From: Liolophura sinensis
Taxonomy: Eukaryota > Mollusca > Polyplacophora > Chitonida > Chitonidae
Length of the DNA stretch: 64,000 nt
Assembly: GCF_032854445.1 (NCBI RefSeq)
Contig: NC_088307.1
Span: forward strand, 9,004,017 to 9,068,016
Reading direction: 5' to 3'
The position numbers were made by a program, and so were the translations under genes. Within the stretch, counting starts at the first letter, position 1. Each line of letters opens with the position of its first letter. Shown piece after piece: positions 10,331 through 64,000 of the stretch. The notes below the pieces were generated by a model. The model made no database searches. It saw nothing but the letters and a program-made list of their open reading frames with translations, and was not told the DNA's origin.

Positions 10331-11346
10331 ATAACTTACCGGTAGATGGCTTCTACTGACAATATCATGACTTCCGCTGTCACTTTCTCATGGACGTGTG
10401 CGGGAGTGGATTGGCAGGTTTTGTTTTTGATGTGGTGGACTGCCTGTGTGTCTATCCTTGTACCGAATAAAGGTGTGGGATTTGACGTCCCTTTGTTTGT
10501 ATGTCAGTGACTCTTCATTGTCATATGTACTGAAATTGTTCAGTATGATATGAAATCTCAAGCATTCATTCATTCATTCTTTTTCATTACATTTTAATAG
10601 CATAACATTTTTTCTTTACGCTTGCCTGAGGGCTATATTCTCCTGGCCTTGTCTTATGTATCTTCTGGGCATGCCCAGAGGGCAGTCATATGTACTGACT
10701 CACTCTCTTATCTCTTTTGGCAAAAGAAAACTGTTAAATTGAAATTCATTTTAGCCTTGCATAAGAAAGTTGTTAAGGATAAGGGGTAAGGATGTTATGT
10801 TCTGTTTGGATACCAAACCATATTGGTATCCATGGAAAGACAGTCATAGAGATGGAGACCTAAGCTGCCCTGAATAAACCTATATTGATAGTAAAAATCC
10901 CCTATACTGATTTTCGTTCAAACATTCTTAAGTATATTCATCACCTTTGGCAGGGTGAATAGAACCTACAAGTCCATTATAAACTGCAAGAATTTCACTG
11001 CCATTCTTATACACAAGCTATGTCTCTTAGAGACCAAGTAGTTTTATACTGTTTCCAAGATAAACTTATAAAAACGGGATGGTTTTCGGGTTTAAACTGT
11101 TTTGGATCTTCTCGATTATCTGGTTTTAAACATGTTCAACCACTTTTGTTTTATTTTTGGTGTTCTCATTACGATATCAAAAACACATTTTCCACCTTGT
11201 GCTTTCAACTTGCTATGGCACAAATATTGACAATATGGCGTTAAGCCGTAATCGTTCATTCTTTGTGTGTATACCACACTCTTAATATGACAGGCTTTGT
11301 TTGATATCTGTGGTCGCCATGGGAGACTTTCTTGTTAGTTCTTTCA

Positions 11347-12446
11347 TGCTCTTGCCAGCATCCTGTTTGGTGTCCCTTTGCTCTCATGCTCTTGCCAGCA
11401 TCCTGTTTTGTGTCCCTTTGCTCTCATGCTCTTGCCAGCATCCTGTTTTGTGGCCCTTTCCTGTCATGCTCTTGCCAGCATCCTGTTTTGTGGCCCTTTG
11501 CTCTCATACACTTGCCAGCATCCTGTTTTGTGCCCTGTTGCTCTCATGCTCTTGCCATCATTCAGTTTTGTGGGCCTTTGCTCTCATGCTCTTGCCTGCA
11601 TCCTGTTTTGTGGGCCTTTGCTCCCATGCTCTTGCCAGCATCCTATATTGTGGCCCTTTGCTCTCATGCTTTTGCCAGCACCCTGTTTTGTGGCCCTTTG
11701 CTCTCATGTTCTTGCCAGCACCCTGTTTTGTGGCCCTTTGCTCTCATGTTCTTGCCAGCACCCTGTTTTGTGGGCCTTTGCTCTTATGCTCTTGCCAGCA
11801 TCCTGTTTTGTGGCCCTTTGCTCTCATGCTCTTGCCAGCATCCTCTTTTGTGGGCCTTTGCTGCCATGCTCTTGCCAGCATCATGTTTTGTGGTCCTTTG
11901 CTCTCATGCCCTTGCCAGCATCCTGTTTTGTGGTCCTTTGCTGTCATGCTCTTGCCAGCATCCTGTTTTGTGGGCCTTTGCTCTTATGCTCTTGCCAGCA
12001 TCCTGTTTTGTGGTCCTTTGCTGTCATTCTCTTGCCAGCATCCTGTTTTGTGGGCCTTTGCTGTCATGCTCTTGCCAGCATCCTGTTTTGTGGGCCTTTG
12101 CTGTCATGCTCTTGCCAGCATCCTATATTGTGGCCCTTTGCTCTCATGCTCTTGCCAGCATCCTGTTTTGTGACCCTTTGCCCTCATGCTCTTGCCAGCA
12201 CCCTGTTTTGTGGCCCATTGCTGTCATGCTCTTGCCAGCATCCTGGTTTGTGGCCCTTTGCCCTCATGCTCTTGCCAGCATCCTGTTTTGTGGCCCTTTG
12301 CTCTCATGCTCTTGCCAGCATCCTGTTTTGTGGCCCTTTGCCCTCATGCTCTTGCCAGCATCCTGTTTTGTGGCCCATTGCTGTCATGCTCTTGCCAGCA
12401 TCCTGTTTTGTGGCCCTTTGCTCTCATGCTTTTGCCAGCATCCTCC
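11347..12446 (+). repeat. 40-bp minisatellite, about 27 copies
   Basis: The unit runs 'tcatgctcttgccagcatcc' then 'tgttttgtggccctttgctc'. It repeats in register every 40 bp with single-base variants such as gggcc for ggccc, or 'ctgtc' for 'ctctc'. Because 40 is not a multiple of three and the unit lacks stops in the three + frames, all three frames stay open for about 1.1 kb. This gives the false 290-392-codon ORFs. The mirror array at 62853-63333 has only about 12 copies. It lies within the intron 8307-13378. Confidence 0.95.
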
Positions 12447-13134
12447 TCCGACAATATTTAAGGAATGGCTTTTAACACCCTTTCCGCATTCCATCGGTTT
12501 TACTTCCTAACAGTAGTCATGTCCTACTCTTTGTTGGAATTGGTTCTCCCTCTCTGCCACCCCATGTACATGTATACAATATTTATTTATATGTGTGTAT
12601 TATTTTTGTTATTTCTCTTGCTTTAAGTTTTTCGTTTATATATAGATATATATAGGTATATTTATATCCTGTAAAGTTTATGACAGTGGTGGGTTAAATT
12701 GCACGCCAAGCCTTGCATGCACACGTGTGTGTCAACCAGGACCATATACATTTTCAGAGTTAAATTCCCCTCTGACGTTGGACAGACCTGAAGTAAATTA
12801 TTTGGTAGACAAGCATGTATGTCAGGCTTCGTATAATGTCCCCCCAAATTTAATAAAATAAATACATATAGAAATATTATATTATTATTATTTATTATTA
12901 TTTATGTTCATAATTAATATTATTATTTTCCTCAGTTGTGTTGCACCCTTTGTTTAATTGATTCAGCACCAAAATTAATAATTTTTGGCATTTATCTGTC
13001 TCTAAAAATGCACTTTTTGGATGATATGTACATGTAGGTGCTCATTTACTGTAATTTTGGCTTAAGGAATATAAAAGAAAATCTCTTGGCCTCCATATAA
13101 ACATATGCTATATCCAGTATCGGTTGCTTTAAAG
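12447..13134. other. Intron sequence, nothing recognised
   Basis: AT-rich, with a TATT-rich stretch at 12877-12926. 'aatttttggcatttatctgt' near 12980 belongs to a dispersed repeat also seen near 21780 and 57470. It is mirrored at 62165-62840. Confidence 0.5.
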
Positions 13135-13322
13135 AGAAACAGAATCAACTGTGACTGAATGACAGTGGAGATAAGGTTCCGGGGTTAAGCCCTGAAGTCT
13201 TGGTCGTGCGTTAAAAAAACTGAAATACATACCTAAAATATAACTTTAAAGGCTATAGGTGTACCCAAGACTTGCCTATCTCTCACAACAGCCAGTCAGA
13301 ATTGATTCTGTATCCCTCTAAA
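13135..13322. mobile_element. MITE family B copy, mirrored at 61976
   Basis: Ends 'agaaacagaatcaac' and 'gaattgattctgtatccctc' are inverted repeats matching the family copy at 9494-9656. It sits just before the exon at 13379. Confidence 0.7.
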
Positions 13323-13378
13323 GCATTTTCATGAATTCTTATTTGCATTAATCTATATTTGCATCAATTACTTTCTAG

Positions 13379-13516
13379 AACAAGGGAAGCAATCTTTGAG
13401 AATGTGCTTGTCACGCCATAATGAGGATATGAATATCATCAGAGACCTGACGGCCCGGCTGTTTGCCGAAATCGCAAGGTATCACAGGGCAGGGGTGGCC
13501 AATCTTGGCATTACTG
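13379..13516 (+). CDS. Exon E1 of the duplicated gene (left arm)
   Basis: Acceptor 'tactttctag'. It begins with two bases of a split codon, then reads QGKQSLRMCLSRHNEDMN followed by IIRDLTARLFAEIARYHRAG, ending one base into a codon that joins E2 as Glu. The 3' splice site context is unusual: the donor reads 'actg|gcaagt', a GC donor, whereas the mirror exon has 'actg|gtaagt'. GC donors with this flanking consensus can work but are usually less efficient. Compared with the right-arm copy there are two amino acid changes (Q/E and H/R). The helical, charged sequence suggests a structured domain; family not recognised. Confidence 0.88.
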
Positions 13517-13652
13517 GCAAGTTTCTAAACACTTTGTTGAAATATTTTAATAGTTTTGTTGAAACATTTTAATAGTTTTCTCACACAGCTATTATAGAGA
13601 TAAAAATGTAGGGCCATTCATTTATTATAGACTTAATATATTTATAATTTTG

Positions 13653-14180
13653 ATTGGTGTTTTTCTCTGTACTCAAGAATATTTCACTTATACAACGGCG
13701 GCCGGCATTGTGGTGGGAGAAAACCGGGTAGCCCACGATCATCCACAGGTTGCACAGGCCCGGATAGCACAGTTGGTAGAGCGTCCACTTCGGGACCGAT
13801 AGATCCAGGATCAATCCTTGATCGAGTCACACCTAAGACTTTAAAAGAGGAAGTTGTAATTTCCTCACTTAGCGTTCAGCATGAAGGGGATAGTGCAACG
13901 ATTGGTTGACCCGTATCAACCCGGCTCGGGCGGAGCGGCTTACTTGCCTTCGGTAAGTCGTCTCGGTGAAGCAGCACTAGATAAAAGAGTGGTGGAAATC
14001 CGTCCTGCTACAAGGAGGCACATTACATGTACATGCACCCTAAGGATTCCTTCGTCGCCATATGACTGAAAAATCGTTAAGTACGACATTAAACCCCAAG
14101 CACTCACTCACTCCAAGCACTCATTCACTCCACAGGTTGCTGAGAGACCTTCCCACATACAGCCGGAGAGGAAGCCAGAC
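13653..14180 (-). mobile_element. Family 1 SINE, split by a later SINE insertion
   Basis: The tail side (13653-13753) and head-ward side (14129-14180) are continuous in the right arm at 61497-61660. In the left arm they are separated by a 375-bp insertion flanked by a 12-bp duplication. Confidence 0.85.
13754..14128 (+). mobile_element. tRNA-derived SINE (family 2), left arm only, with target-site duplication
   Basis: Head 'gatagcacagttggtagagc', body 'agcatgaaggggatagtgca', 3' end '(cactcact)n'. It is bracketed by perfect 12-bp direct repeats 'tccacaggttgc' at 13742-13753 and 14129-14140. The right arm has the single, uninterrupted target. This is a clean insertion that happened after the two arms (or haplotypes) separated. 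The ORF at 13881-14069 is SINE sequence. Confidence 0.92.
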
Positions 14181-15556
14181 ATAGAATTAAAGAGTAGAAA
14201 ATTAATATAATAAGTCTCTGTAACTGCTTAGTCTCATTAACTGTCTGGGATTTGCCAAAGCCGGCTGTGCATTGTGATAATTTTTCCGTGGTTGTATGTA
14301 TGTACAGTTTTTAAGGTGTAATTTTTCAACATTCTATATTTTAAATTATATAATTATTTATAACTGGATATAAAATATAGAAACTGGCCCACTATCAACC
14401 ATTATACAATTTATTCATTTCAAAATATTTCTATAAATTGTATTTATGAGACAAAAGTTTATAAACTTTACACAGCACGTAAATTGTATGTCTAGTTTGT
14501 ATGTGAGTTATCACATTCAGCAATGTCCAACAACAACATGTCATGTGCATGAATTTGTTAAGGTTTACATAGAATTTAAGGTTGTTTCCTTAATATTTTC
14601 TTACATACTATAGTTTGTCTCTGGGCATTTGTTGTGTATTTTGGGCTTCAAAACTAAGTCATAAATATTTACAAAGATCTAAACTAAAAAAAAAAACGGA
14701 TATCTTTTCTCTTAGAGCAACTCATACCATGCCAGTTACATTTAAAATCTATGGAAATTTCCAGACAAGCGAAATAGGAAGTATCGTCGTTGACGGAGAA
14801 AAACAGAGTAGCATGTAGACACGCTGCGCCACTAAAATTCATCCAAAAATTAACCAATACAAGTATTTACTGGGCAAAACTCCAATAAATTATGTTCACC
14901 TGGCCTGGTACATGGCTTTACCGTAACAAGTTACAGTTAGACCAAATTCCAGCTTCGCACCTCTACGTCCAATTTGGACAACTTGAAACCCTTGACCATT
15001 TCTGTCAGAAAAGTTTTTCAAATCTGTACTCGTTTAACAAACAGCTCTTGAGTTAAATTGGAATTGGTCCATGATTTCACAGTTAGAAGTTACAGATCAG
15101 GTTTGAACTTCAGGCCATTTAGTATATGTTTGTAGAATATTGTGACAGTTTTGTCTGATATTGGACTTAAAATTGTCATTTATATTTTTTTTGAAAATGG
15201 CTGGTCCTCTCCGGCTTAACGTGAAAACACAGGGTTTTCCACAGGTTACTGTTCGGTTCCCCCCCCCCCCCCCCACCCACCCACCATAACGCTAGCTACC
15301 GTCGTATAATTAACTTAATTAACTGAAGAGACTAAAGTAATACAGGTCATAATTCAGCGTTCTGTGAATGAAGTGTCTTGATCACTATGAATTAGACTAT
15401 CGGTATTATCTTTTCAGTAGAACACTTTTATGGTTGTTTTATAACCTGATGTTTTAAGTGGAACAAAGTTGTGCTTGTCTATAGAAATCAAGTTGTTCTA
15501 AATTACTGGGAAAACTTCCTGTATATGTTTCTTGATATTTATATTATTCTTTTCAG
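14181..15556. other. Intron between E1 and E2
   Basis: No exon seen. A degenerate SINE fragment with a 15-base C run lies at 15257-15290 (potential G-quadruplex on the - strand). Relative to the right arm, the left lacks a 1.7 kb insertion (joint near 14905) and carries about 125 bp of its own around 14930-15060. The 67-codon frame at 14615-14818 is conserved in the mirror but has no gene-like features. Confidence 0.5.
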
Positions 15557-15711
15557 AGGACGCCGTGTCTGTCATCAGTGGCGGTTTCCTCCGTGTCGTA
15601 TTAGGAAGTCTGAGTCATGCGATGTTTCGAGGATTCGCTCCTGGGTTTGAGGAGGCAAAACTCAGAGATGTTGAGAGGGCCAGAAGTATAATTCTGACTT
15701 ACCTCAGCAGG
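15557..15711 (+). CDS. Exon E2 of the duplicated gene (left arm)
   Basis: Acceptor 'ttattcttttcag', donor 'agcagg|gtacat'. Two bases complete the Glu codon from E1, then 51 codons: DAVSVISGGFLRVVLGSLSH, then AMFRGFAPGFEEAKLRDVER and a close ending ILTYLSR, phase 0. It is the only open frame across the exon. The right-arm copy differs by one conservative change (Arg/Lys). It is the most conserved-looking part of the tail; family not recognised. Confidence 0.9.
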
Positions 15712-15737
15712 GTACATGTTCTAGTTGTGGGGAAATC

Positions 15738-15952
15738 TGGCCCAGGATCACAAATCAATCCTAGACTTTTTGAAGTCAGAATTTCAGATCACTTTAAAAC
15801 TGTTATTTCTTATGTAACCAGGTCAAAATATTGCTTGACAATGTAAATTCTGGGTATGGGTAAGTTATCATAAAACTGACTTCAGCTAAAATAATGGAAA
15901 GAAACATAAGACAGTTTTACATCAGTCCAAGATTGCTTCGTTATCCTGGGTT
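15738..15952. mobile_element. MITE family A copy (intronic)
   Basis: The left end 'ggcccaggatcacaaatcaa' and right end 'gattgcttcgttatcctggg' are imperfect inverted repeats. The interior has 'cactttaaaact' and 'aaaataatggaaag', as in the copies at 24897 and 29429. Mirrored at 58100-58315. It starts only 26 bp after exon E2. Confidence 0.75.
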
Positions 15953-16396
15953 CATTGCTGCTCTTTTTAGCCAATTTACATGTAATTGTAACAGGAACGT
16001 AGCTGATAGCAAAGGACTTACATTTTACCATCCTCAAATTGGCCAACTTTGCTTTTGAAAGTACATATAGCAATTTCCAAGATTCAGAGAAGGGAATATT
16101 GATTCTAATGCTTCCGTATAATAAATTTTAACCATAATTCAACACTGAATGTTCAAAGCCATTGTTTCTATTCAGTGTTATGAAGAAGTATTCATTTTAA
16201 GCGTTGAAGATGGTGTCTCAAAATGTAAACTGTAGTTTTAAGCCATTTTTATGCCCCAAGAAGAGAACATGAGTAAGACTTCTAAAACTTCAATTTAATA
16301 ATGCAGTAAATATAATTGTTTTAATTTGTGCCATGAAACTTAAAGTCTACCTTTATTTATTTTTTTTTTTTTTTTTTTTTTTTTTGCTCATTACAG

Positions 16397-16517
16397 CTGC
16401 CATTCGTGTGCCCCTTGTATTGGGTCCTCCTTACCCCAAACTGTACAGCCATAAACATTTTGAGCAGAATTCATTTATTAAAGCCAACCCAGGAGGTTTC
16501 ATATGATCTAGCCACAG
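16397..16517 (+). CDS. Exon E3 of the duplicated gene (left arm)
   Basis: Preceded by a 29-base T run and 'gctcattacag'; donor 'cacag|gtaagg'. Phase 0 follows from E2 and is open: LPFVCPLYWVLLTPNCTAIN, then a Leu-rich part ending SYDLAT plus one base. Phases join cleanly to E2 and E4. Oddly, the differences from the right arm are mostly replacements in this frame (F/S, V/R, Y/C), while the frame offset by one reads AIRVPLVLGPPYPKLYSHKH with mainly silent changes but hits TGA before the donor. The exon is real by splice sites; its reading frame is the least certain of the set. Confidence 0.7.
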
Positions 16518-16532
16518 GTAAGGACATCTTTA

Positions 16533-16612
16533 AAAATGCTGGCTGTCGCCGTATTAGTGAAATATTCTTGAGTACGGCGTAAAACACCAATCAAATAAAT
16601 AAATAAATTAAT
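16533..16612 (+). mobile_element. Family 1 SINE 3' fragment
   Basis: 'agtgaaatattcttgagtac' followed by 'ggcgtaaaacaccaatcaaa' and an (AAAT)n tail. 5'-truncated. Mirrored at 56862-56942. Confidence 0.85.
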
Positions 16613-17149
16613 AGCACCCAACAAACATGAGGGGAAGTATTTGTTCCTATACTGTCTCTTGAGCACGTCTTTTTGTTTAACCAGGTATGGTAGGATTATG
16701 ATTGTCAGCACAGTTTTGATTTGTCATATTACAAATTTACATTAATCATATATATTAATGAAAACTTGAACGTTATGGGGGAAGAAAAAAATGGGGGTCA
16801 CTACACCATCCTGTTTAATTCTGATTTTGTGGTAAATTGATCCGCATAAATTTGAGGGAGCGGTGAACCCAGTTTAAAAAATTGTAAACAAATATATGAT
16901 CTGAAATTTCACCTAAAGAAGTGCATTTTTATATAAATCACATAAATTGATACTGAAACTGGAATACACCATCCTAACTTCCAAGCAAACCTCAAAACAC
17001 CTTTCTAAGAGCAAAAAAACTCTCAGAATCAGGAAAAAGTAGCAGGTTAGTCGCGGACGAAATTTGAAATCATTTACAGTATAAAATGAATCCATTTTCT
17101 CAGACGGTTTGTAATTTTCCTTCTTTTATCGGAAATGGTATTTTATGGA

Positions 17150-17507
17150 CAGACCTCGACAGCTCAGCTGGTAGAGCGTCTTCTTCAGAGGCGGTAGATC
17201 CAGACTCAATCCTGGGTTGGGTCACACCTAAGACCATAAAAGAGGAATTAGTAACTTCCTCGCTTGGCGTTCAGCATGAAGGGGATAGTGCAACGACTGG
17301 TTGGCCCGTATCAGTATAATGGCTCGGGTAGGGCAGCTTACTTGCCTTCAGTAAATGGTCACAGTGGAGAAGCACTAGATAAAAGAGCAGTGGAAATCCT
17401 TCCAGCAACAAGGAGGCATATTACACGTAGATGTACTCTAAAGTCTCCATTGTCATATGACTGAAATATTGTTAATTACGGCGTTAAACCCCCAAGCACT
17501 GGCTCAC
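17150..17507 (+). mobile_element. tRNA-derived SINE (family 2)
   Basis: Head 'cagctcagctggtagagcgt', body 'agcatgaaggggatagtgca' and end 'gcgttaaacccccaagcact'. Only its last 115 bp survive in the right arm (56636-56752), because the right arm lacks the DNA corresponding to about 16740-17390. The ORFs at 17086-17464 are SINE sequence. Confidence 0.88.
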
Positions 17508-17538
17508 TATTTTATGGTTGTTGTTGTTGTTGTTGCAG

Positions 17539-17681
17539 ATGAGCCAGGTTTTTTGACGTCTGATGATCAAGCATCATATTTCCAGAGATTTCTTTCTGGA
17601 CCACACCAGCTGGCACTGACTAGTTGTGACCAGAATGCCAGTGGCACAGGCTCTCCGACCCAGCCCATCTCACCCCACATG
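17539..17681 (+). CDS. Exon E4 of the duplicated gene (left arm)
   Basis: A (GTT)n tract forms the acceptor ending 'gttgttgcag'; donor 'cacatg|gtacat'. The split codon with E3 gives Asp, then EPGFLTSDDQASYFQRFLSG and later SPTQPISPHM, 48 codons in total, phase 0. Ser/Thr/Pro-rich, probably disordered. The right copy lacks 12 bp (four codons, around QASYF) and has several replacements, so this segment is under weak constraint. Confidence 0.85.
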
Positions 17682-17699
17682 GTACATATGCCTTACTGT

Positions 17700-18057
17700 T
17701 ACGACCCAAACTGCCTGTATTATTAAGAGATGGCTTGTTCGAAATACACGACAGTTTAGCCGCACAAAAAGTAATCAAAACCAGCAGATTTTATTTTACA
17801 ACAATTTATTAGCTTAACAAGAACAGATAATAAGACTTATACAAATACTGGTGTCATTGGAGTCTTGACGCTTACAATAGGTTAAGTTGCAAACTCATGG
17901 CGTTACGACGGAAAACTGTTAAGCTACTCCAATAACGCAAGTTGTGTCCTCCAAATAAATTAGACCAATGCTGTATTTTCACAAAGTCACTGGTGATACA
18001 TATTAAGAATGATGTACAATAGAACACTATTTACATGTTTACAGTCATAATGGCGTC
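17700..18057. other. Intron, nothing recognised
   Basis: AT-rich, no splice-supported frame. Mirrored at about 56140-56440. Confidence 0.5.
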
Positions 18058-18232
18058 CTCTCAGGACGTACATAGCAAGGTCTTCCAGCAACCTGTGGAT
18101 GACCGTGGGTTTAACCCGGGCTCTGCATAGTTCCCCCTCCCACCCCAGTAAAGCTGGCCGCTGTTGTATAAGTGAAATATTTTTGAGTACAGGTTGAAAA
18201 AAACAATCAAATAAATAAATACATACATGTTT
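18058..18232 (+). mobile_element. Family 1 SINE, 5'-truncated
   Basis: Begins within the body ('ggtcttccagcaacctgtgg'), continues through 'gtgaaatatttttgagtaca' to an (AAAT)n tail. Mirrored at 55975-56130. Confidence 0.85.
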
Positions 18233-18420
18233 ACAGCATGGACTGAGCTTGAAAGCTGCAGCACATGTGTTGTATTGTTATCGGACAGGGTAATGTGCAT
18301 AAAATACATGCAGTTGCAAAGTACATTTTCTCGGCTTAAGTTCCACATTTTGCAAGTAAAATTTGATACTTACAATAGACTAAGTCTTCATGAGTAGGTT
18401 TTCACTTGTATTTCACACGG

Positions 18421-18690
18421 GGGCCTCTGTGGCTCAGTTGGTTAGCACGCTAGCGCAGAGTAATGACCCATGAGCCTCTCACCAATGCAGTCGCTGTGAG
18501 TTCAAGTCCAGCTCATGCTGGCTTCCTCTCCGGCTGTAAGTGAGAAGGTCTGCCAGCAACCTGCGGATGGTCATGGGTTTCCCGTGGGCACTGCCCGAAT
18601 TCCTCTCACCATAATGCTGGCCGCAGTCGTATTGAAATATTCTTGAATACGGCGTAAAACACCAATCAAATAAATAAAATAAATTTATTT
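18421..18690 (+). mobile_element. Family 1 SINE, essentially full length
   Basis: tRNA-like head 'tgtggctcagttggttagca' (A box) and 'gtgagttcaagtccagctca' (B-box region). The central body is 'tggtcatgggtttcccgtgg', the 3' domain 'gaaatattcttgaatacggc', and the tail (AAAT)n. This is the best copy for defining the family. Mirrored at 55541-55790. Confidence 0.92.
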
Positions 18691-18868
18691 CACACCCAAA
18701 CAGATAAAACTGTTACTGTTCATGAGTATCTTAACCTCTCTAGTGTTAATTTCATACTCAACAAAGGTTCAGGCTGATTGTCGCGCACAAATAAAAGACA
18801 CCAACCTGAAGACCTGCTTTCCGCACCCAACGCCCCGCCACCATATATGCTGCTCCATTTAGAACAGA

Positions 18869-19024
18869 TTTATTATAGCCATGAAGGCTTCCAAGGGATA
18901 CGCCCCTTGGCTACTGCTGCCATTTTCCTACTGCTCCGCTATGAAGCAGGGCGTGTGTAGCTGCTCAACATGGTGGCAGTCGCCGAGGAGCGTATACCGT
19001 GAAAGCCTTCATGGCTATAATAAA
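18869..19024. mobile_element. Foldback element (MITE family D)
   Basis: A 38-bp inverted repeat: left arm starts 'tttattatagccatgaaggc', right arm ends 'gccttcatggctataataaa', with a few mismatches inward. Loop about 80 bp. Mirrored at 55231-55390. The frames at 18778-19102 run across it and are not genes. Confidence 0.85.
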
Positions 19025-19620
19025 TATGACGCTAGGCCAGTAAAAGAAAAGGAGTTGCAGTCTTTCGGGGCTAGCTTTGGGGAGTCATTTAAACACGTTT
19101 AATAGTTGGCAAGAGTCCTAACCCTGTCTCTTCCAAACCTTTTCATGAATGTCCTGAAAAGCCAACAGGGTCATTTGACTGACTGTCAGGTATACAGTCT
19201 AACTCTCGATCGTTGAAGGCCTCTAATGTCATTCACCAATAGGATGTGCTTATCCTTAGTCACACATGTTTCGACATAAACTTGCCACAGGTGGGTGGTT
19301 CACTCTGGGCAGTCAGTCTTTCCTCATCCATGTTACTGCCTACTGTCATGTAAGTGAGAAGTTTTTGAGTTTGGCATTCAACAACATTCAAGTAAAATCA
19401 ATAAATAAATAAATATATCCTTGAAAAGCTCATAGAAACAGGTGTTTGACCTGAATTATCATGCATTTGGGTATATAATTGTCATATTTCTTGGCTTATG
19501 TTCATGCAGCAGTGCTTTTGTCCTGTAATCACTTTGCTCAGTGTAGGTGTAGCTAATTGTAATTAATTCTCTATAAATAATGTTTTTTATAATTTACCAT
19601 TTTTATTTTTGTGTTTTCAG

Positions 19621-19708
19621 AGAGTCAGAGAATCTGGAGAAAATGTGGAAACGCGCGAGGAAGAGCGTTGGGAGCAGCGGAGACGGGGGCAGTGGTGGCA
19701 ACGGCAGT
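19621..19708 (+). CDS. Exon E5 of the duplicated gene (left arm)
   Basis: Acceptor 'ttttgtgttttcag', donor 'gcagt|gtaagt'. Phase 0 from E4 gives RVRESGENVETREEERWEQR followed by RRGQWWQRQ plus one base, strongly charged and probably helical. The right-arm copy is 15 bp shorter in frame (five codons of the Arg/Gly/Trp stretch), so both copies keep the reading frame. An alternative frame (ESENLEKMW...) is also open, but it would break phase with E4 and E6. Confidence 0.8.
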
Positions 19709-19971
19709 GTAAGTACACTATACTTGTATTCAAGGCTTGTACACAGTTCAAGGTGGAGATTCATTCATGGTTTGTATACGCAGGTTGTATTATGTTATGC
19801 TGTCTGTCTGTTTGTCTGTCTTGTAAATTACAGCACTACAGTAGGTTCACAGGAAGAATGGAAGACATCTAGCATGTCTAGGATAAAGATCATGACCAGT
19901 TCAAAGGGCGGAGAGATCAATTTGTGCGAGATTGTCCTGAAAATTGTTATATAATGCACTTAGACCTTAGC

Positions 19972-20358: not shown

Positions 20359-20459
20359 TTATTTAAGAGGCTGCAATGGCGCTCTGAAATCAATTCAAAA
20401 GTTGTTATCCTAAAAAGGTATTCTTCTGCTTCATATTTCACAACCATCTTTTTTTTTTT

Positions 20460-20732: not shown

Positions 20733-20759
20733 CAACTGTCTAAATGCCACCCGAAGAAG

Positions 20760-54312: not shown

Positions 54313-54574
54313 GTAAGTGCGTTATATAACAATTTCAGGACAATCTCGCACAAATTGATCTCTCCGCCCTTTGAACTGGTCATGATCTCTATCCTAGACA
54401 TGCTAGATGTCTTCCATTCTTCCTGTGAACCTACTGTAGTGCTGTAATTTACAAGACAGACAAACAGACAGACAGACAGACAGCATAACATAAAACAACC
54501 TGCGTATACCAACCATGAATGAATCTCCACCTTGAACTGTGTACAAGCCTTGAATACACGTATAGTGTACTTAC

Positions 54575-54647
54575 ATTGCCGTTGCCGCCGCTGCTCCCAA
54601 CGCTCTTCCTCACGCGTTCCCACATTTTCTCCAGATTCTCTGACTCT
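54575..54647 (-). CDS. Exon E5 of the duplicated gene (right arm), 15 bp shorter
   Basis: RVRESGENVGTREEERWEQR, RQRQ plus one base. Same acceptor and donor positions as 19621-19708. It lacks five codons of the left copy's Arg/Gly/Trp stretch and has Glu to Gly. The phase is kept. Confidence 0.8.
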
Positions 54648-55230
54648 CTGAAAACACAAAAATAAAAATGGTAAATTATAAAAAACATCATTTATAGAGA
54701 ATTAATTACAATTAGCTACACCTACACTGAGCAAAGTGATTATAGGACAAAAGCACTGCTGCATGAACATAAGCCAAGAAATATGACAATTACATAACCA
54801 AATGCATGATAATTCAGGTCAAACACCTGTTTCTATGAGCTTTTCAAGGATATATTTATTTATTTTATTTGAATGTTGTTGAATGCCAAACTCAAAAACT
54901 TCTCACTTACATGACAGTAGGCAGTAACATGGATGAGGAAAGACTGACTGCCCAGAGTAAACCACCCACCTGTGGCAAGTTTATGTCGAAACATGTGTGA
55001 CTAAGGATAAGCACATCCTATTGGTGAAGGACATTAGAGGTCTTCAACGATCGAGAGTTAGACAGTATACCTGACAGTCAAATGACCTTGTTGGCTTTTC
55101 AGGACATCCATGAAAAGGTCCATGAAGAGACAGGGTTAGGACTCTTGCCAACTATTAAACGTGTTTAAATGACTCCCCAAACTTAGCCCCGAAAAGATCC
55201 AACTCCTTTTCTTTTACTGGCCTAGCATCA

Positions 55231-55390
55231 TATTTAGTATGGCCATGAAGGCTTTCAGGATATACGCTCCTCTGCGACTGCCACCATGTTGAGCAGCTAC
55301 ACACGCCCTGCTTCATAGCGGAGCAGTGGGAAAATGGCGGCAGTCGCCAAGGGGCGTATCCCTTGGAAGCCTTCATGGCTGTAATAAATC
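55231..55390. mobile_element. Foldback element family D (mirror of 18869)
   Basis: 'atggccatgaaggctttc' paired with 'aagccttcatggctgtaat'; inverted ends slightly more decayed than in the left copy. Confidence 0.82.
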
Positions 55391-55540
55391 TGTTCTAAAT
55401 CGTCTACCAACGATTAATCAGTCACATCATTGTTACCTGTGTATGTTCGTTTGTCTTTTTAACAAACTGATCAATACTTACTCATAATTCATTTCTAAGT
55501 CAGTATTTGGAGGTTTTATCTGTTTGGGTGTGAAATAAAT

Positions 55541-55790
55541 TCATTTTATTTATTTGATTGGTGTTTAACGCTGTACTCAAGAATATTTCACTTATACGAC
55601 AGCGGCCAGCATTATGGTGGGAGGAAACCAGGCAGTGTCCGGGTGAAACCCATGACCATCTACAGGTTGCTGGCAGACCTTCCCACTTAGGGCCGGAGAG
55701 GAAGCCAGCATGAGCTGCACTTGTACTCACAGCGACCGCATTGGTGAGAGGCTCCTGGGTCATTACGTTGCGCTAGTGTGCTAACCAGCT
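55541..55790 (-). mobile_element. Family 1 SINE (mirror of 18421)
   Basis: 'gattggtgtttaacgctgta', 'gacagcggccagcattatgg', 'gcactTgtactcacagcgac'-like head side; the extreme head is trimmed ('gtgctaaccagctgatg'). Confidence 0.88.
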
Positions 55791-55974
55791 GATGAAACAT
55801 TAGTTTATTGTAAGTATCAAATTTTACTTGCAAAATGTGGAAGTGAAGCCGAGAAAATGTAATTTTCAACTGCATGTATTTTTTGCATATGACCTCTTCT
55901 GATAACAATACAGCACATGTGCTGTAGCTTTCGAACTCAATCCATGCTGTAAACATGTACATATTTGTTTAATT

Positions 55975-56130
55975 CTTTTTTCTTTTTTAAGCCGTACTCA
56001 AGAATATTTCACTTATACGACAGCGGCCAGCATTATGGTGAGAAGGAACTATTCAGAGCCCGGGGGAAACCGTCGACCAACAGCAGGTTGCTAAAAACCT
56101 TGCCACGTATGTCCGGAGAGGAAGCCATTA
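55975..56130 (-). mobile_element. Family 1 SINE fragment (mirror of 18058)
   Basis: 'actcaagaatatttcactta', 'gcggccagcattatggtgag', ending 'gtccggagaggaagccatta'. Confidence 0.83.
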
Positions 56131-56481
56131 TGACTGTAAACATGTAAATAGTGTTCTATTGTACATCATTCTTAATATGTATCACCAGTGACTTTGTGAA
56201 AATACAGCATTGGTCTAATTTATTTGGAGGATGTAACTCGTGTAACTCAAGAAGCTTAACAGTTTTCCGTCGCAATGCTATGAGTTCGCCTGACTCGCGC
56301 GTATCTGGTTAACAAGTAACTTAACCTATTGTAAGCGTCAAGTCTCCAACGACGCCAGGCCAGCATAAAGAAAGGAGTTGGAGTCTTTTGGGGCTACCCC
56401 CAACCTAAAACAATGGAAGCAAGGAAATCCCAAAATTCAATCCCCCTTTTTTTTTTTAACTGGGATATAGAGCATATGTAC

Positions 56482-56612
56482 CATGTGGGGTGAGATGGGC
56501 TGGGTTGGAGAGCCTGTACCACGGGCATTCTGGTCACAACTAGTCAGTGCCAGCTGCTGTGGTCCAGAAAGAAATCTCTGTGGATCATCTGACATAAAAA
56601 AACCTGGCCCAT
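56482..56612 (-). CDS. Exon E4 of the duplicated gene (right arm), 12 bp shorter
   Basis: DGPGFFMSDDPQRFLSGPQQ and SPTQPISPHM. Same splice sites as 17539-17681, four codons fewer. Several replacements in a Ser/Pro-rich stretch, few silent changes. Confidence 0.83.
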
Positions 56613-56635
56613 CTGCAACAACAACAACCATAAAA

Positions 56636-56752
56636 TAGTGAGCGAGTAATAGTTTAACGCGGTAATTAACAATTTTTCAATCATATGACGACCGAGTCCT
56701 TAGAGTACAGGTAAGTTTTAATGTGCCTCCTTGTGGCAGGATGGATTTCCAC
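56636..56752 (-). mobile_element. Family 2 SINE 3' part only
   Basis: Inverse of the end of the SINE at 17150: 'tgcctccttgtggcaggatg'. The rest is missing with the adjoining 16740-17150 DNA, one deletion of about 640 bp relative to the left arm. Confidence 0.8.
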
Positions 56753-56861
56753 CGCTCTTTTATCGTCCTGCTCCACGTCATAATATGACAAATAAAAACT
56801 GTGTTGACAATCATAATCAGTATAGGAACAAATACTTCCCCTCATGTTTGTTGGGTGCTAT

Positions 56862-56942
56862 TAATTTATTTATTTACTTGATTGGTGTTTTACGCCGTAC
56901 TCAAGAATATTTCACTACTACGGCGACAGCCAGCATTTTTAA
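56862..56942 (-). mobile_element. Family 1 SINE fragment (mirror of 16533)
   Basis: 'gattggtgttttacgccgta', 'ctcaagaatatttcactac'. Confidence 0.85.
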
Positions 56943-56954
56943 AGATGTCCTTAC

Positions 56955-57075
56955 CTGTGGCTAGATCATATGAAACCTCCTGGGTTGGCTTTAATAAATG
57001 AATTCTGCTCAAAATGTTTATGGCTGTACAGTTTGGGGTAAGGAGGACCCAACACAAGGGGCACCTGGATGGCAG
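56955..57075 (-). CDS. Exon E3 of the duplicated gene (right arm)
   Basis: Same 121-bp length and splice sites as 16397-16517. Phase-0 reading LPSRCPLCWVLLTPNCTAIN has three replacements in the first eight codons compared with the left copy. The intron T tract before it is replaced here by an (AAAT)-like run. Confidence 0.7.
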
Positions 57076-57207
57076 CTGTAATAAGCAAAAAAAAAATAAA
57101 TAAATAAATAAATAAAATAAAGGCAGACTTTAAGTTTCATGGCACAAATTAAAACAACTATATTTACTGCATTATTAAATTGAAGTTTTACAAGCCTTAC
57201 TCATGTT

Positions 57208-57795
57208 TATTTTGATCACTTAAATGACGATGATCTGATGCAAATTCAAACACAAGAGAGCTCATAATAATGGTTTAAAGGCAAAATCGAACCATTTTAT
57301 TTCTTGTACTATTTCACTGACGTTTTACAAGCTGTACTCAAGGATATTTCAATGACTTAAACAATGACAGCCAGCCTAATGGTGGAGTGCAAATTCAACC
57401 TCAGGAGAATTCACAAAAAAGGTTTAAAGACAATTCACCCAAATTTTCACTCCAAAGAGTGCATTTTAGAGACAACTAAATGTCATAAAATATTCCATTC
57501 AGTGCTGAACCTTTCATTTTCTCAGAAGGGCAAAACTTGCAACCTTGGCATGGCAGAAACTTTGGTCATTTAATTATAACAGTATGTTTTTGATTCACAG
57601 GAACATTAAACATACCCAATACCAAAGACATTAGACAGACTTTATCTGATCTATTTGATGACTTTTAGGTAGCTAATTAATATTATGCAAACTCAAGCTT
57701 AAAGGATACATGAACCGTTTGGTTTCTATGTCTCAATTTGTAGTTTAGGATGTGTCCTGACAAGCTACTTCAAGTACAAAAGAGCTTCCTTCTTC
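57208..57795. other. Right-arm-only insertion, about 590 bp
   Basis: The left arm is continuous at the matching point near 16265. Contents: a decayed family 1 SINE piece at 57310-57390 ('tcaaggatatttcaatgact') and a dispersed repeat piece ('gagtgcattttagagacaac') also seen near 12980 and 21780. No ORF of note. Confidence 0.7.
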
Positions 57796-58099
57796 TCTTC
57801 TTGGGGCATAAAAATGGCTTAAAACTTCAGTTTACATTTTGAGACACCATCTTCAACGCTTAAAATGAATACTAACACTGAATAGAAACAATGGCATTGA
57901 ACATTCAGTGTTGAATTATGGTTAAAATTTATTATACGGAAGCATTAGAATCAATATTCCCTTCTCTGAATCTTGGAAATTGCTACATGTAATTTCAAAA
58001 GCAAAGTTGGCCAATTTGAGGATGGTAAAATGTAAGTCCTTTGCTATCAGCTACATTCCTGTTACAATTACATGTAAATTGGCTAAAAAGAGCAGCAAT

Positions 58100-58315
58100 G
58101 AACCCAGGATAACGAAGCAATCTTAGACTGATGTAAAACTTTCTTATGTTTCTTTCCATTATTTTAGCTGAAGTCAGTTTTATGATAACTTACCCATGCC
58201 CAGAATTTACATTGTCAAGCAATATTCTGACCTGGTTACATAAGAAATAACAGTTTTAAAGTGATCTGAAATTCTGACTTCAAAAAGTCTAGGATTGATT
58301 TGTGATCCTGGGCCA
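58100..58315. mobile_element. MITE family A (mirror of 15738)
   Basis: 'gaacccaggataacgaagca' and 'gatttgtgatcctgggcc' ends. Confidence 0.75.
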
Positions 58316-58341
58316 GATTTCCCCACAACTAGAACATGTAC

Positions 58342-58496
58342 CCTGCTGAGGTAAGTCAGAATTATACTTTTGGCCCTCTCAACATCTCTGAGTTTTGCCT
58401 CCTCAAACCCAGGAGCGAATCCTCGAAACATCGCATGACTCAGACTTCCTAATACGACACGGAGGAAACCCCCACTGATGACAGACACGGCGTCCT
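58342..58496 (-). CDS. Exon E2 of the duplicated gene (right arm)
   Basis: Same 155-bp length and splice sites as 15557-15711. One Arg/Lys replacement in 51 codons; the best conserved exon apart from E7. Confidence 0.9.
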
Positions 58497-59239
58497 CTGA
58501 AAAGAATAATATAAATATCAAGAAACATATACAGGAAGTTTTTCCAGCAATTTAGAACAACTTGATTTCTATAGACAAGCACAACTTTGTTCCACTTAAA
58601 ACATCAGGTTATAAAACAACCATAAAAGTGTTCTACTAAAAAGATAATACCGATAGTCTAATTCACTTCTAAATCAAGACACTTCACTTCTAAATCAAGA
58701 CACTTCATTCACGGAACGCTGAATTATGACCTGTATTACTTTAGTCTCTTCAGTTAATTAAGGTAATTATACGACGGTGGCTAGCATTATGGCAGGGGAG
58801 GGGGGCGGGGCGGAGGAACCGAACAGCAACCTGTGCAAAACTCTGTGTCCTCACGTTAAGCCGGAGAGGACATGCCATTGTCAAAAAAAATATAAATGAC
58901 AATTTTAAGTCCAATATCAGACAAAAACTGTCACAATATTCTACAAACATATACTAAATGAGCAGAAGTTCAAACCTGATCTGTAACTTGTAACTGTGAA
59001 ATCATGGACCAATTCTTGTTACGGTAAAGTCATGTACCAGGCCAGGTTTCATTTCAACATGAAGAATATGAAATGACAAGACTGACAGATCAAAAAAAAT
59101 AAACCTATACAGAGATTTGGATGTAGACAAATTGTGTGATGTACTGTAATTTTAAAATCTTTCCTAAATCTGGGAGCGAATCATTAGGTGTGTGTACTTA
59201 CGCTGTGCCTTGGGAACGGACAAAAACCCAGTACACGAA

Positions 59240-59492
59240 ATCCCCGGAGGACAAAAGCCCCTCGATCAGTATTAACGGTTATATGGTCAATGACAAATGT
59301 TGATAGCTTCTTTTGAGAAAAATGGAAACCTTCTACCTGAAGTGATGTTTCAGATTTTAATATATGTTTACAATAGAAACCGTTCTTACTAACGCCAAGT
59401 AATCAAACAGTTTGTTGATGAAATCGTTTTTTGTTAGGCTCGAAATCAGAAAGAGCTGTTTTCTCTCAAGAGTATACAGAATGCTTGACCTA
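59240..59492. repeat. Dispersed repeat with 'ccccggaggacaaa' motif
   Basis: Related to 40876-41145 through 'aaatccccggaggacaaaag', 'gatcagtatt' and 'ctcaagagtatacagaatgc'. Type unknown. Confidence 0.6.
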
Positions 59493-59581
59493 AATTCCAG
59501 CTTCTAAAATCAAAAGAAATTTAAAAATATGGTAAACAATTGCTGTTGAAGCTTGTGTTAGACTTTCATTCCTATAAGAAC

Positions 59582-59842
59582 AGTGGCCTCCGTGGCTCAG
59601 TTGGTTAGCGTGTTAGCACAGTGTAATGACCCAGGAGCCTCTCAGCAATGTGATGATCGCTGTGAGTTCAAGTCCAGCTCATGCCTTTTTCCTCTCTTAC
59701 TTGGGAAGATCTTCCAGCAACCTGCGGATGGTCATGGGTTTCCCTCTGTCTCTTCCACGTTTCCTCCCACAGTAATGCTGGCTGCCGTATGGGTGAAATA
59801 TTCTTGAGTACGGCGTAAAAGACCAATCAAATAAATAAACAA
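59582..59842 (+). mobile_element. Family 1 SINE, full length, right arm only
   Basis: Head 'cgtggctcagttggttagcg', 'gtgagttcaagtccagctca', 3' domain 'gaaatattcttgagtacggc', (AAAT)n tail. Among the least decayed copies. Confidence 0.9.
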
Positions 59843-59984
59843 TCCTGTAAAAACACAGATCTTATGTATATATCAATTGTTTCTATCCAAAAAATATCTT
59901 TTACATGATATACAGTGATGTTGATAGGTACACATCCTGATTCTCTGATGCAAACAAATCGCAGACGGACGCAGTAGTCTCACT

Positions 59985-60210
59985 ACTGATGCGTCATGAA
60001 GACGTACCAGTCTTCACCCCACCCCCTACCCCCTTTATTGTAAGCATGATAAGGTCACCAGCCCGAGGGTGGCTTATATATACTGAAACGCAGGGAATGC
60101 TGGCCACATTTGGCCCAAGAGTTATATGGACCCGATTCCGGTACAACGCTTACAATGAGTTACCCCCTCGTTCAATTCCGATGCATGTGCTTTAGATTCA
60201 TACTGAATAC
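59985..60210 (-). promoter_or_regulatory. Possible LTR-type promoter region
   Basis: On the - strand 'cagtatatataagccaccct' looks like a TATA box, and 'gcttacaataaagg' about 40 bp on holds AATAAA, the order seen in retroelement LTRs. I could not find the LTR ends or a second copy, so a solo LTR is only a guess. Confidence 0.3.
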
Positions 60211-61496
60211 ACACATACCACGGCAATTCTGAAAGCTAAAATGTTTATGCACATTTTGCCACAACAGCTACTTGCCTTTACATTACCATTCTCCTGTAAA
60301 TCTTTGCCCAAGTCGAAAATAGGCTTGTATTTAGCAAGTCCCCACACTCTGCAATGTTTTTAAAATATGGGTCAGCCAGGTGCCTATGACCAGCAGCTGT
60401 TGACTTCTCAGTGGAATTTAAAATTCAACAGTTGCTGAAAACAACCCCCCAACTTAGTACTGCAAACTTAATTTGACATTTCGCACATATTATAGGGTTC
60501 GTCATTGTGCTCCACAGCTTTCAGACAACTGCAAATTCGCGCCTCCGCAGTAACATGGCCTTCTCTCAGTCAGAACTGACAGCCAGTTGATCAAAACATA
60601 GAGACGTGATGAAAGGTCAACCACGCATGTGCCTTCAAGCAACGACCCGATTTATTAGGTCACGATGTCGACAGGGCATGTGAGCGTAAGTTACAACTGT
60701 GAATTATCTTGGGTTTACCGGCCTTACAGGCTACAGAATGTGGCAAAAATTGGCAGCAGAGGAACAGAGAATGTCTTGGTGAACATAATTTATTGGAGTT
60801 TTGCCCGGTAAATACTTGTATTGGTTAATTTTTGGATGAATTTTAGTGGCGCAGCATGTCTACATGCTACTCTGTTTTTCTCCGTCAACGACGATACTTC
60901 CTATTTCGCTTGTCTGGAAATTTCCATAGATTTTAAATGTAACTGGCATGGTATGAGTTGCTCTAAGAGAAAAGATATCTGTTTTTTTTTTTAGTTTAGA
61001 TCTTTGTAAATATTTACAACTTAGTTCTGAAGCCCCAAATACACAACAAATGCCCAGAGACAAACTATAGTATGTTAGAAAATATTAAGGCAACAACCTT
61101 AAATTCTATGTCAACCTTAACAAATTCATGCACATGACATGTTGTTGTTGAACATTGCTGAATATGATAACTCACATACAAATTAGACATACAATTTATG
61201 TGTTGTGTAAAGTTTATAAACTTTTGTCTCATAAATACAATTTATAGAAATATTTTGAAATGAATAAAATGTATAATGGTTGATAGTGGGCCAGTTTCTA
61301 TATTTTATATCTAGTTATAAATAATTATATAATTTAAAATATAGAATGTTAAAAAAATAAACCTAAAAAAAGTGTACATACATATGACCATGGAAAAATT
61401 ATCACAATGCACAGCCGGCTTTGGCAAATCTCAGACACTAAATGAGACTAAGCAGTTACAGAGACTTATTATATTATTTGTCTACTCTTTAATTCT

Positions 61497-61660
61497 ATGT
61501 CTGGCTTCCTCTCCGGCTGTATGTGGGAAGGTCTCTCAGCAACCTGTGGATGATCGTGGGCTACCCGGTTTTCTCCCACCACAATGCCAGCCGCCGTTGT
61601 ATAAGTGAAATATTCTTGAGTACAGCGTAAAACACTAATCAAAAATATAAATATATTAAG
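61497..61660 (+). mobile_element. Family 1 SINE, uninterrupted (mirror of 13653)
   Basis: 'ctggcttcctctccggctgt', 'cagcaacctgtggatgatcg', 'gtgaaatattcttgagtaca'. Shows the empty target of the left-arm SINE insertion. Confidence 0.88.
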
Positions 61661-61775
61661 TCTATGATAAATGAATGGGCCTACATTTTTATCTCTATAA
61701 TAGCTGTGTGAGAAAACTATTAAAATGTTTCAACAAAACTATTAAAATATTTCAACAAAGTGTTTAGAAACTTAC

Positions 61776-61913
61776 CAGTAATGCCAAGATTGGCCACCCC
61801 TGCCCTGTGATACCTTGCGATTTCGGCAAACAGCCGGGCCGTCAGGTCTCTGATAATATTCATATCCTCATTACGGCGTGACAAGCACATTCTCAAAGAT
61901 TCCTTCCCTTGTT
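61776..61913 (-). CDS. Exon E1 of the duplicated gene (right arm), normal GT donor
   Basis: Same 138-bp length and acceptor ('gttctag' context) as 13379-13516. Two replacements (Q/E, H/R). The donor is 'actg|gtaagt', the canonical form of the left arm's 'actg|gcaagt'. Confidence 0.88.
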
Positions 61914-61975
61914 CTAGAAAGTAATTGATGCAAATATAGATTAATGCACATAAGAATTCATTAAAATGCTTTAGA

Positions 61976-62164
61976 GGGATACAGAATCTATTCTGACTGG
62001 CTGTTGTGAGAGATACGCAAGTCCTGGCTACGTCTATAGCCTTTAAAGTTAAATTTTAGCTATGTATATCAGATTTTATAACGCATGACCAAGACTTCAG
62101 GGCTTAACCCCGGAACCTTATCTCCACTGTCATTCAGTCACAGTTGATTCTGTATCCCTTTAAA
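61976..62164. mobile_element. MITE family B (mirror of 13135)
   Basis: 'agagggatacagaatctatt' and 'agttgattctgtatcccttt' ends. Confidence 0.7.
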
Positions 62165-62852
62165 GCAAAAGGCAGCCGATACTGGATATAGCATATGTTT
62201 ATATGGAGGCCAAGTTAAAGAGATTTTCTTTTATATTTCTTAAGCCAAAATTACAGTAAATGAGCACCTACATGTACATATCATCCAAAAAGTGCATTTT
62301 TAGAGACAGATAAATGCCAAAAATTATTAATTTTGGTGCTGAATCAATTAAACAAAGGGTGCAACACAACTGAGGAAAATAATAATATTAATTATGAACA
62401 TAAATAATAATAACATAATATTTCTATATGTATTTATTTTATTAAATTTGGGGGGACATTATACGAAGCCTGACATACATGCTTGTCTACCAAATAATTT
62501 ACTTCAGGTCTGTCCAAGGTCAGAGGGGAATTTAACTCTGAAAATGTAGATGGTCCTGGTTGATACACACACAAGTGCATGCAAGGCTTGGCATGCAATT
62601 TAACCCACCACTGTCATAAACTTTACAGGATATAAATATACCTACATATATATAAACGAAAAACTTAAAGCAAGAGTAATAATAAACATAGTAAACACAT
62701 ATAAATAAATATGTATACATGTACATGGGGTGGCAGGGGGGGAGAACAGATTCCAACCAAGACTAGGACATGACTACTGTTAAGAAGTAAACCGATGGAA
62801 TGCTGAAAGGGTGCAAAAAGCCATTCCTTGGAAGAGGATGCTCAGAAGAGCA

Positions 62853-63333
62853 TGAGAGCAAAGGCCCACAAAAAAAGGATGCTGGCAAGAGCGTGAGAGT
62901 AAAGGCCCACAAAACAGGATGCTGGCAAGAGCATGAGAGCAAAGGCCCACAAAACAGGATGCTGGCAAGAGCATGAGAGCAAAGGCCCACAAAAAAAGGA
63001 TGCTGGCAAGAGCGTGGGAGCAAAGGCCCACAAAACAGGATGCTGGCAAGAGCATGAGAACAAAGGGCCACAATATAGGATGCTGGTAAGAGCATGGGAG
63101 CAAAGGCCCACAAAACAGGATGCAGGCAAGAGCATGAGAGCAAGAGCCACAAAACAGGATGCTGGCAAGAGCATGAAAGCAAAGGCCCACATAAAAGGAT
63201 GCTGGCAAGAGCATGAGAGCAAAGGCCCACAAAAACAGGAAGCCGGCAAGAGCATGAGAGCAAAGGGCCATAAAACAGGATGCTGGCAAGAGCATGAGAG
63301 CAAAGGCCACAATACAGGATGCTGGCAAGAGCA
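62853..63333 (-). repeat. 40-bp minisatellite (mirror), about 12 copies
   Basis: Unit on the + strand 'gcatgagagcaaaggcccac' then 'aaaacaggatgctggcaaga'. Some units are 39 or 41 bp. Less than half the copy number of the left array. The open frames here (62763-63379 and 62933-63415) are repeat read-through. Confidence 0.95.
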
Positions 63334-64000
63334 TGAAACAACTAACAAGAAAATCTCCCATGGCAACCACAGATATCAAACAAAGCGCGTTATATTAAGA
63401 GTGTGGTATACATAAGTGTAAAAGAATGAATGATTGTGGTTTAACACCATACTGTCAGTATTTGTGCCATAGCAAGTTGAAAGTACGAGGTGGAAAATGC
63501 AGTTGAACATGTTTAAAACCAGATAATCGAGAAGATCCAAAACAGTTTAAACACGAAAACCATCCTGCTTTTATAACTTTATCTTGTAAACAGTATAAAA
63601 CTACTTTGTCTCTAAGAGACATAGCTTGTGTATCAAAATGACGGTGAAATTCTTGCAGTTTATAATGGACTTGTAGGTTCGATTCACCCTGCCAAAGGTG
63701 ATGAATATACTTAAGAATGTTTGAACGAAAATCAGTATAGGGTATTTTTACTTTCAATGTAGGTTTATTCAGGGCAGCTTAAGCCTCCCTCTCTATGACT
63801 GTGTTTCCATGGATACCAATATGGTTTGGTATCCAAACAGAACATAACATCCTTACCCCTTATCCTTAACAACTTTCTTATGTAAGGCTAAAATGAATTT
63901 TCAAATTTATTGTTTTCTATTGCCCAAAGAGACAAGAGAGTGAGTCAGTACATATGACTGCCCTCTGGGAATGCCCAGAAGATACATAAGACAAGGCCAG
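63334..64000. other. Right arm beyond the minisatellite, intron
   Basis: Inverse of 10643-11346, with a few small indels; no gene. Homology is still strong at the window's last base. Confidence 0.6.

What the first reader, a model, noticed from the sequence alone, without database searches (positions are those of the whole stretch)
10643..64000. Giant inverted duplication: 23.6 kb and 22 kb arms around a 7.8 kb spacer
The last bases of the window are the inverse of 10643 onward, and homology runs inward on both sides to 34198 and 41971. Seven exons, a Penelope element, four MITE families, several SINEs and three tandem arrays are mirrored in order. If real, it places two intact 3' gene halves convergently, able to make overlapping or double-stranded RNA and prone to gene conversion, as in sex-chromosome or ampliconic palindromes.
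Basis: seen in the sequence. Interest (0 to 1): 0.88.

Follow-up and report, generated by a model that had tools for sequence, protein, structure and literature searches.

The report
Duplicated chiton gene, mirror-image copies
A chiton chromosome carries a 44-kilobase stretch with one uncharacterised gene copied in mirror image beside the original; it looks like a real but fairly ordinary old gene duplication rather than a sex-chromosome-style palindrome.

Summary
The inverted duplication is present and larger than reported. The window is C13:9004017-9068016 of an assembly matching the chiton Liolophura sinensis. With 100 kb of flank on each side, arm A runs -9935..34198 (44.1 kb) and arm B 41971..106578 (64.6 kb, including a later 21.4-kb insertion with terminal inverted repeats and a 6-bp target-site duplication). 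Aligned sites (about 35 kb) are 96.4-96.5% identical. Each arm holds all 10 exons of one gene model, not only a 3' half: arm B is RefSeq LOC135480744 isoform X2 (445 aa, minus strand); arm A has the same exons open on the plus strand. An old tandem paralogue T (LOC135480638, 46% aa identity) lies to the left; its 3' flank is nevertheless 93-95% identical to arm B. In the innermost ~1 kb of shared sequence B groups with T, not with A. This favours paralogues with sequence exchange over two folded-together alleles. Best reading: a true inverted segmental duplication in a local gene cluster. The >99% arm identity of ampliconic palindromes was tested and not met; sex linkage is untested. Double-stranded RNA is unsupported (stop codons 27 kb apart). 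Read-depth proof could not be run.

The parts
1..34198 (+). Arm A as far as it lies in the window; it begins at -9935, outside the window
   Evidence: Inverted alignment to 41971-74233 and 95616-106578
34199..41970 (.). Spacer, 7.8 kb
   Evidence: No arm-length mirrored homology; only short repeat matches
41971..64000 (-). Arm B as far as it lies in the window; it continues to 106578 with a 21.4-kb insertion at 74234-95622
1848..23455 (+). Gene copy in arm A: 10 exons (1848-1895, 2426-2572, 3686-3818, 13379-13516, 15557-15711, 16397-16517, 17539-17681, 19621-19708, 21983-22293, 23378-23455), open frame of 453 codons; exon 4 donor is GC; 5' end uncertain
   Evidence: Mapped from the arm B model; exon 1 has 1-bp offset differences around the annotated start
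50840..64000 (-). Part of the arm B gene LOC135480744 inside the window: exons 4-10 (61913-61776, 58496-58342, 57075-56955, 56612-56482, 54647-54575, 52309-51999, 50917-50840); exons 1-3 lie at 72514-70190
   Evidence: Spliced DNA equals RefSeq protein P0002 letter for letter
24867..28182 (+). Reverse-transcriptase element in arm A (Penelope-like by recall)
   Evidence: RVT_1 E 6.5e-5, below the curated cut-off; mirrored at 49139-45812, 97.2%
45812..49139 (-). The same element in arm B, its frame more broken up
11344..12444 (.). 40-bp tandem array in arm A, 27.5 units
   Evidence: TRF
62846..63336 (.). 40-bp tandem array in arm B, 12.2 units
   Evidence: TRF
30744..33262 (+). Inner end of arm A where A departs from both B and the third copy T; includes an A-only insertion of about 1.4 kb (31401-32813)
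   Evidence: Three-way alignment; insertion
31963..32754 (+). Open frame with a chromodomain-like match in the A-only repeat insertion
   Evidence: Chromo E 1.1e-4, 22.5 bits, below the cut-off 25.1; repeat copies elsewhere in the genome
34200..34735 (.). Small inverted-repeat element beside the inner end of arm A; a relative lies beside the arm-like end of T in the opposite orientation

Best explanation
A genuine inverted segmental duplication of about 44 kb. It doubled one uncharacterised gene with its upstream region and resident repeats, near an older tandem paralogue (T). Afterwards the arms drifted apart to about 3.5% at aligned sites and came to differ in length by 120 bp or more at 21 places. 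Sequence was also exchanged between non-allelic copies: the 3' flank of T is far more like the arms than its gene body is, and at the inner end A is the odd one out while B and T stay close. Shown: the structure in the assembly, the gene copies, the private insertions, the change of grouping. Inferred: that the animal carries it as assembled, and that gene conversion or unequal recombination caused the exchange; direction and donor are not resolved. How the inversion arose (break repair, template switching) is not resolved.
For: Colinear inverted homology over 44 kb. One N-run in the 264 kb examined, 200 Ns at 93813-94012 inside the late insertion, so arm A, spacer and 32 kb of arm B are gap-free. 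The TSD TAAGTT on both sides of the insertion matches the empty site in arm A, tying inner and outer arm B together across that gap. Sequences outside the arms are not homologous to each other over long stretches. 10 exons open in both arms; coding indels 3, 12 and 15 nt; dN 0.027, dS 0.046; coding divergence 2.6% against 3.6% in non-coding of the same span. T flank 93-95% identical to B while the proteins are 183/396 identical for A-T and 182/393 for B-T. Grouping: outer 11 windows A=B 199, A=T 25, B=T 38; inner 4 windows 17, 19, 105. Leaving out 4 outer windows that align badly to T: 76, 17, 29 (Fisher 7.6e-20; sites are linked, so this overstates). Longest identical tract 666 bp against 510 at most in 500 local-rate simulations. 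Low-copy arm sequence 2264-3866 matched A and B and, beyond them, one 408-bp stretch of C12 at 82% (40 of 1810 candidates scored).
Against: No reads or depth could be examined. The source reads are 14x HiFi with mean 8,347 bp. The contig shows trouble at its right end: a second copy of the insertion's right end with a foreign flank at 93318-93812, and it holds a 3,588-bp tandem repeat at 100% identity, which could be an assembly slip. Average heterozygosity is 1.24%, and single loci can exceed that, so 3.5% alone does not exclude alleles. dN/dS 0.585 has a bootstrap range of 0.29-1.29: selection between the arms is not proven. The 666-bp tract lies in sequence that is repeated elsewhere in the genome at 71-80%. 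The insertion's interior may partly belong to another copy.
Confidence: 0.83

Rival explanations
1. Assembly artefact: arm B is the other haplotype of a single locus, joined head to head with arm A by a chimeric path in hifiasm.
For: Thin, short HiFi data and purge_dups were used; the contig end shows a wrong path; a perfect 3,588-bp tandem repeat nearby.
Against: Gap-free through both inner junctions; spacer halves and outer flanks are not homologous to each other as haplotypes would be; B is nearer to the paralogue T than to A at the inner end; mean divergence about three times the mean heterozygosity.
Confidence: 0.12
2. A sex-linked or ampliconic palindrome kept alike by arm-to-arm gene conversion.
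For: Gene-bearing inverted arms and patchy identity (index of dispersion 7.9 over 69 windows, longest identical tract 666 bp).
Against: Arms 96.4-96.5% identical, not above 99%; no sex-linkage evidence; arm GC 0.387 and 0.384 is not above the spacer's 0.402, so no sign of GC-biased conversion.
Confidence: 0.03
3. A functional hairpin locus that makes double-stranded RNA from read-through of the two convergent genes.
For: Genes point at each other.
Against: Stop codons 27,385 bp apart, no transcript evidence examined; same-sense transcripts from own promoters are not complementary (established logic).
Confidence: 0.02

Closest known systems
Inverted segmental duplications inside local gene clusters (general knowledge)
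   Same: Arms well over 1 kb and over 90% identical at aligned sites, whole gene and older repeats copied, private later insertions, further relatives next door
   Different: The neighbouring old paralogue shares only its 3' flank at high identity, a mosaic left by exchange
Palindromes of mammalian sex chromosomes (PMC8981503, PMC3403216, PMC6790999; start of abstracts seen in the listing only)
   Same: Gene-bearing inverted arms around a shorter spacer, patchy identity
   Different: 96.4-96.5% arm identity instead of above 99%; no sex linkage known
Palindromic repeats of the willow sex chromosome (PMC7023750; start of abstract seen in the listings only)
   Same: Large palindromic repeats outside mammals
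   Different: The willow repeats are on a sex chromosome; no such evidence here

Membership tests
Inverted segmental duplication | Two copies of at least 1 kb and 90% identity in opposite orientation | tested here: met
   About 44 kb of arm, 34,997-35,599 aligned sites at 96.4-96.5%
Inverted segmental duplication | Copies are paralogues, not alleles | tested here: inconclusive
   Non-homologous flanks and grouping with T favour paralogues; no read depth
Ampliconic / sex-chromosome palindrome | Arm-to-arm identity above 99% | tested here: not met
   3.5-3.6% mismatches
Ampliconic / sex-chromosome palindrome | Lies on a sex chromosome | not testable with these tools
   No sex-specific data held
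Ampliconic / sex-chromosome palindrome | Testis- or gonad-biased gene expression | not testable with these tools
   RNA-seq of five tissues is published (table) but reads are not held here
Protein-kinase superfamily (pseudokinase) | Sequence match to a kinase family | tested here: not met
   No kinase family up to E 10 for P0001 or P0002
Protein-kinase superfamily (pseudokinase) | Kinase fold | tested here: inconclusive
   All 50 listed Foldseek entries (of 1737 with E<=10, none with E<=0.001) are kinases or complexes holding a kinase or the PAN3 pseudokinase, best E 0.018; but the model has mean pLDDT 29.7
Large TIR DNA transposon, Polinton-like (name recalled) | Long terminal inverted repeats and 6-bp target-site duplication | tested here: met
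   467-468-bp ends at 99.4%, TSD TAAGTT, empty site in arm A
Large TIR DNA transposon, Polinton-like (name recalled) | Polymerase B, integrase and capsid genes | not tested
   Only 4 ORFs of the insertion were scanned: RRM in two, C2H2 zinc finger in one, nothing above cut-off in one

The most novel reading that the evidence does not exclude
A fast-changing, possibly kinase-derived gene family of chitons evolves by inverted duplication and repeated exchange between inverted and tandem copies, so that 3' flanks are traded among genes whose proteins are otherwise only about 46% identical; the spacer may even differ in orientation between individuals.
Probability: 0.12. Interest if true: 0.5.

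Novelty: new member of a known kind. Interest (0 to 1): 0.3.

Why it matters
If confirmed with reads, it gives a dated-by-divergence, gene-bearing inverted duplication in a mollusc class with few genomes, with a third copy that lets exchange between copies be read site by site. It also warns that RefSeq models in this locus (LOC135480744, LOC135480638) belong to a recently rearranged cluster, so orthology calls across chitons need care.

Tried and rejected
Pfam and PDB scans of long read-through frames of the window found only transposon matches (RVT_1, Chromo) and weak chance hits; coverage was partial: 1-11.3 kb and 18.9-33.9 kb, not every frame. A DEPDC5 match to exon 9 (E 0.16) was low-complexity. 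Spliced exons gave no domain. Protein searches found the RefSeq proteins; one protein each, and the database is clustered at 90%, so whether arm A's protein is annotated separately cannot be told. A genome-wide count of this gene family failed: the tool was busy. A satellite array on either side (-98.7 to -81.9 kb; 138.7 to 151.1 kb) suggested a still larger mirror, but the units differ. A first reading that the inner 2.5 kb of B had been replaced from T was weakened on recount: the compared sequence is about 1 kb (949 full columns in 4 windows), A is the odd one out there (dAB 0.07-0.17, dBT 0.03-0.06), and 4 of 11 outer windows align badly to T.

Full report
Where it is. The window is G000:C13:9004017-9068016 of a 609,464,459-base assembly in 632 contigs. 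A published chiton assembly has 609.5 Mb in 632 scaffolds and 13 pseudomolecules (PMC11068029; passages, section 11); its scaffold_9 has 30,102,928 bases, the same length as the contig given for the two RefSeq proteins found here, while C13 as held has 30,099,635. The species was published as Liolophura japonica and corrected to L. sinensis (PMC12441733, whole text). The data were 14x HiFi with mean read length 8,347, assembled by hifiasm, purge_dups and YaHS; heterozygosity 1.24%.

The observation. The mirrored match in the window is real and goes far beyond chance (null and a 50-kb control). With 100 kb added on each side, arm A runs from -9935 to 34198 and arm B from 41971 to 106578. The chain aligns 35,599 sites with 3.59% mismatches, or 34,997 with 3.49% when the tandem array and a spacer repeat are left out. 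The arms differ in length by 120 bp or more at 21 places, A longer at 10 and B longer at 11.

The insertion in arm B. Between 74234 and 95622 arm B holds 21.4 kb that arm A lacks. Its ends are 467-468-bp inverted repeats at 99.4%, and the six bases TAAGTT stand on both sides, once in the empty site of arm A. The only N-run of the 264 kb, 200 Ns at 93813-94012, lies in it. The left contig ends in a further copy of the right end followed by a foreign flank, while the right contig carries the right end with the correct flank. The target-site duplication therefore supports the scaffold join, but the interior may partly come from another copy.

The genes. Two searches of a protein database returned one RefSeq protein each: P0001, LOC135480638 isoform X2, and P0002, LOC135480744 isoform X2. 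P0002 is reproduced letter for letter by 10 exons on the minus strand of arm B, 72514-50843 plus stop. The same 10 exons lie on the plus strand of arm A, 1848-23455, open throughout, with coding indels of 3, 12 and 15 nt. The annotated start codon of B reads Trp in A with Met next, and a local alignment of exon 1 shows 1-bp offset differences around it, so the 5' end of A is uncertain; exon 4 of A has a GC donor. There are 14 synonymous and 27 non-synonymous differences in 444 codons, dN/dS 0.585, bootstrap 0.29-1.29. So the arms hold whole gene models; the 'seven exons' are exons 4-10. P0001 maps to T, an old tandem paralogue at -51612 to -33842 on the plus strand, its last two exons repeated in a 3,588-bp tandem repeat at 100%. 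A and T proteins share 183 of 396 residues, B and T 182 of 393.

Exchange between copies. The stretch -28032 to -23789 beside T matches arm B at 93-95% and arm A at 81-96%, far more than the gene bodies do. In a three-way alignment the grouping changes at about 30744 in A: outer 11 windows, A=B 199, A=T 25, B=T 38; inner 4 windows, 17, 19, 105. Four outer windows align badly to T; without them the outer counts are 76, 17, 29. The distance B-T stays at 2-6% in the well-aligned inner and first five outer windows, whereas A is up to 17% from both in the inner ones, so A is the odd one out; whether A was overwritten from an unseen copy or B and T exchanged is open. Along the arms, mismatches are strongly clustered (index of dispersion 7.9 over 69 windows) and one 666-bp identical tract exceeds 500 of 500 simulations with local rates, though it lies in repeated sequence. 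Uneven mutation rates could contribute.

Real or artefact. Against two alleles folded together: no gap at either inner junction, flanks and spacer halves without mutual homology, the target-site duplication, and B nearer to T than to A at the inner end. For it: thin read data and visible trouble in the same contig. Depth could not be examined. I put the chance of a true inverted duplication at 0.83, lowered slightly from 0.85 after the recount.

Function. Neither protein matches a Pfam family (two sub-threshold chance hits for P0001). By eye the order of strands and helices and some motifs recall a protein kinase without its catalytic residues (recall and inference). A model of P0002 is unreliable (mean pLDDT 29.7), yet all 50 listed Foldseek entries are kinases or complexes with one, best E 0.018, none at 0.001 or below. 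This is a lead only.

Verdict. Ordinary in kind, a gene-bearing inverted segmental duplication in a local cluster, with an interesting mosaic history. It is not shown to be an ampliconic palindrome or a source of double-stranded RNA. No search for earlier reports of this very locus was made; the paper searches concerned the species and palindromes in general.

Noticed in passing
74234-95622 (outside the window, right): 21.4-kb insertion with 467-bp inverted ends and 6-bp target-site duplication; two of its ORFs match RRM_1 (E 1.4e-17 and 2.5e-10) and one a C2H2 zinc finger, as if a host RNA-binding gene had been carried along; the interior may belong to another copy.
   Followed up: partly
109238-129039 (outside the window, right): A second inverted duplication, with open frames of the Ulp1 protease family (PF02902, E 6.7e-9) in it; another such frame at 159766-160569 (E 9.5e-6).
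   Followed up: partly
-35736 to -28563 (outside the window, left): A 3,588-bp tandem repeat at 100% identity holding the last two exons of LOC135480638: very recent, or an assembly slip.
   Followed up: no
91717-93812 and 94013-95622: The contigs on both sides of the 200-N gap overlap at 99.0%; the left one ends in a 495-bp foreign flank.
   Followed up: partly
-98680 to -81902 and 138673-151097: Two long satellite arrays (units about 28 and 25 bp) on either side of the locus, of different families.
   Followed up: no
151466-151603: A weak match (E 0.099 and 0.21) to the same exon of both gene products, perhaps a further relative.
   Followed up: no
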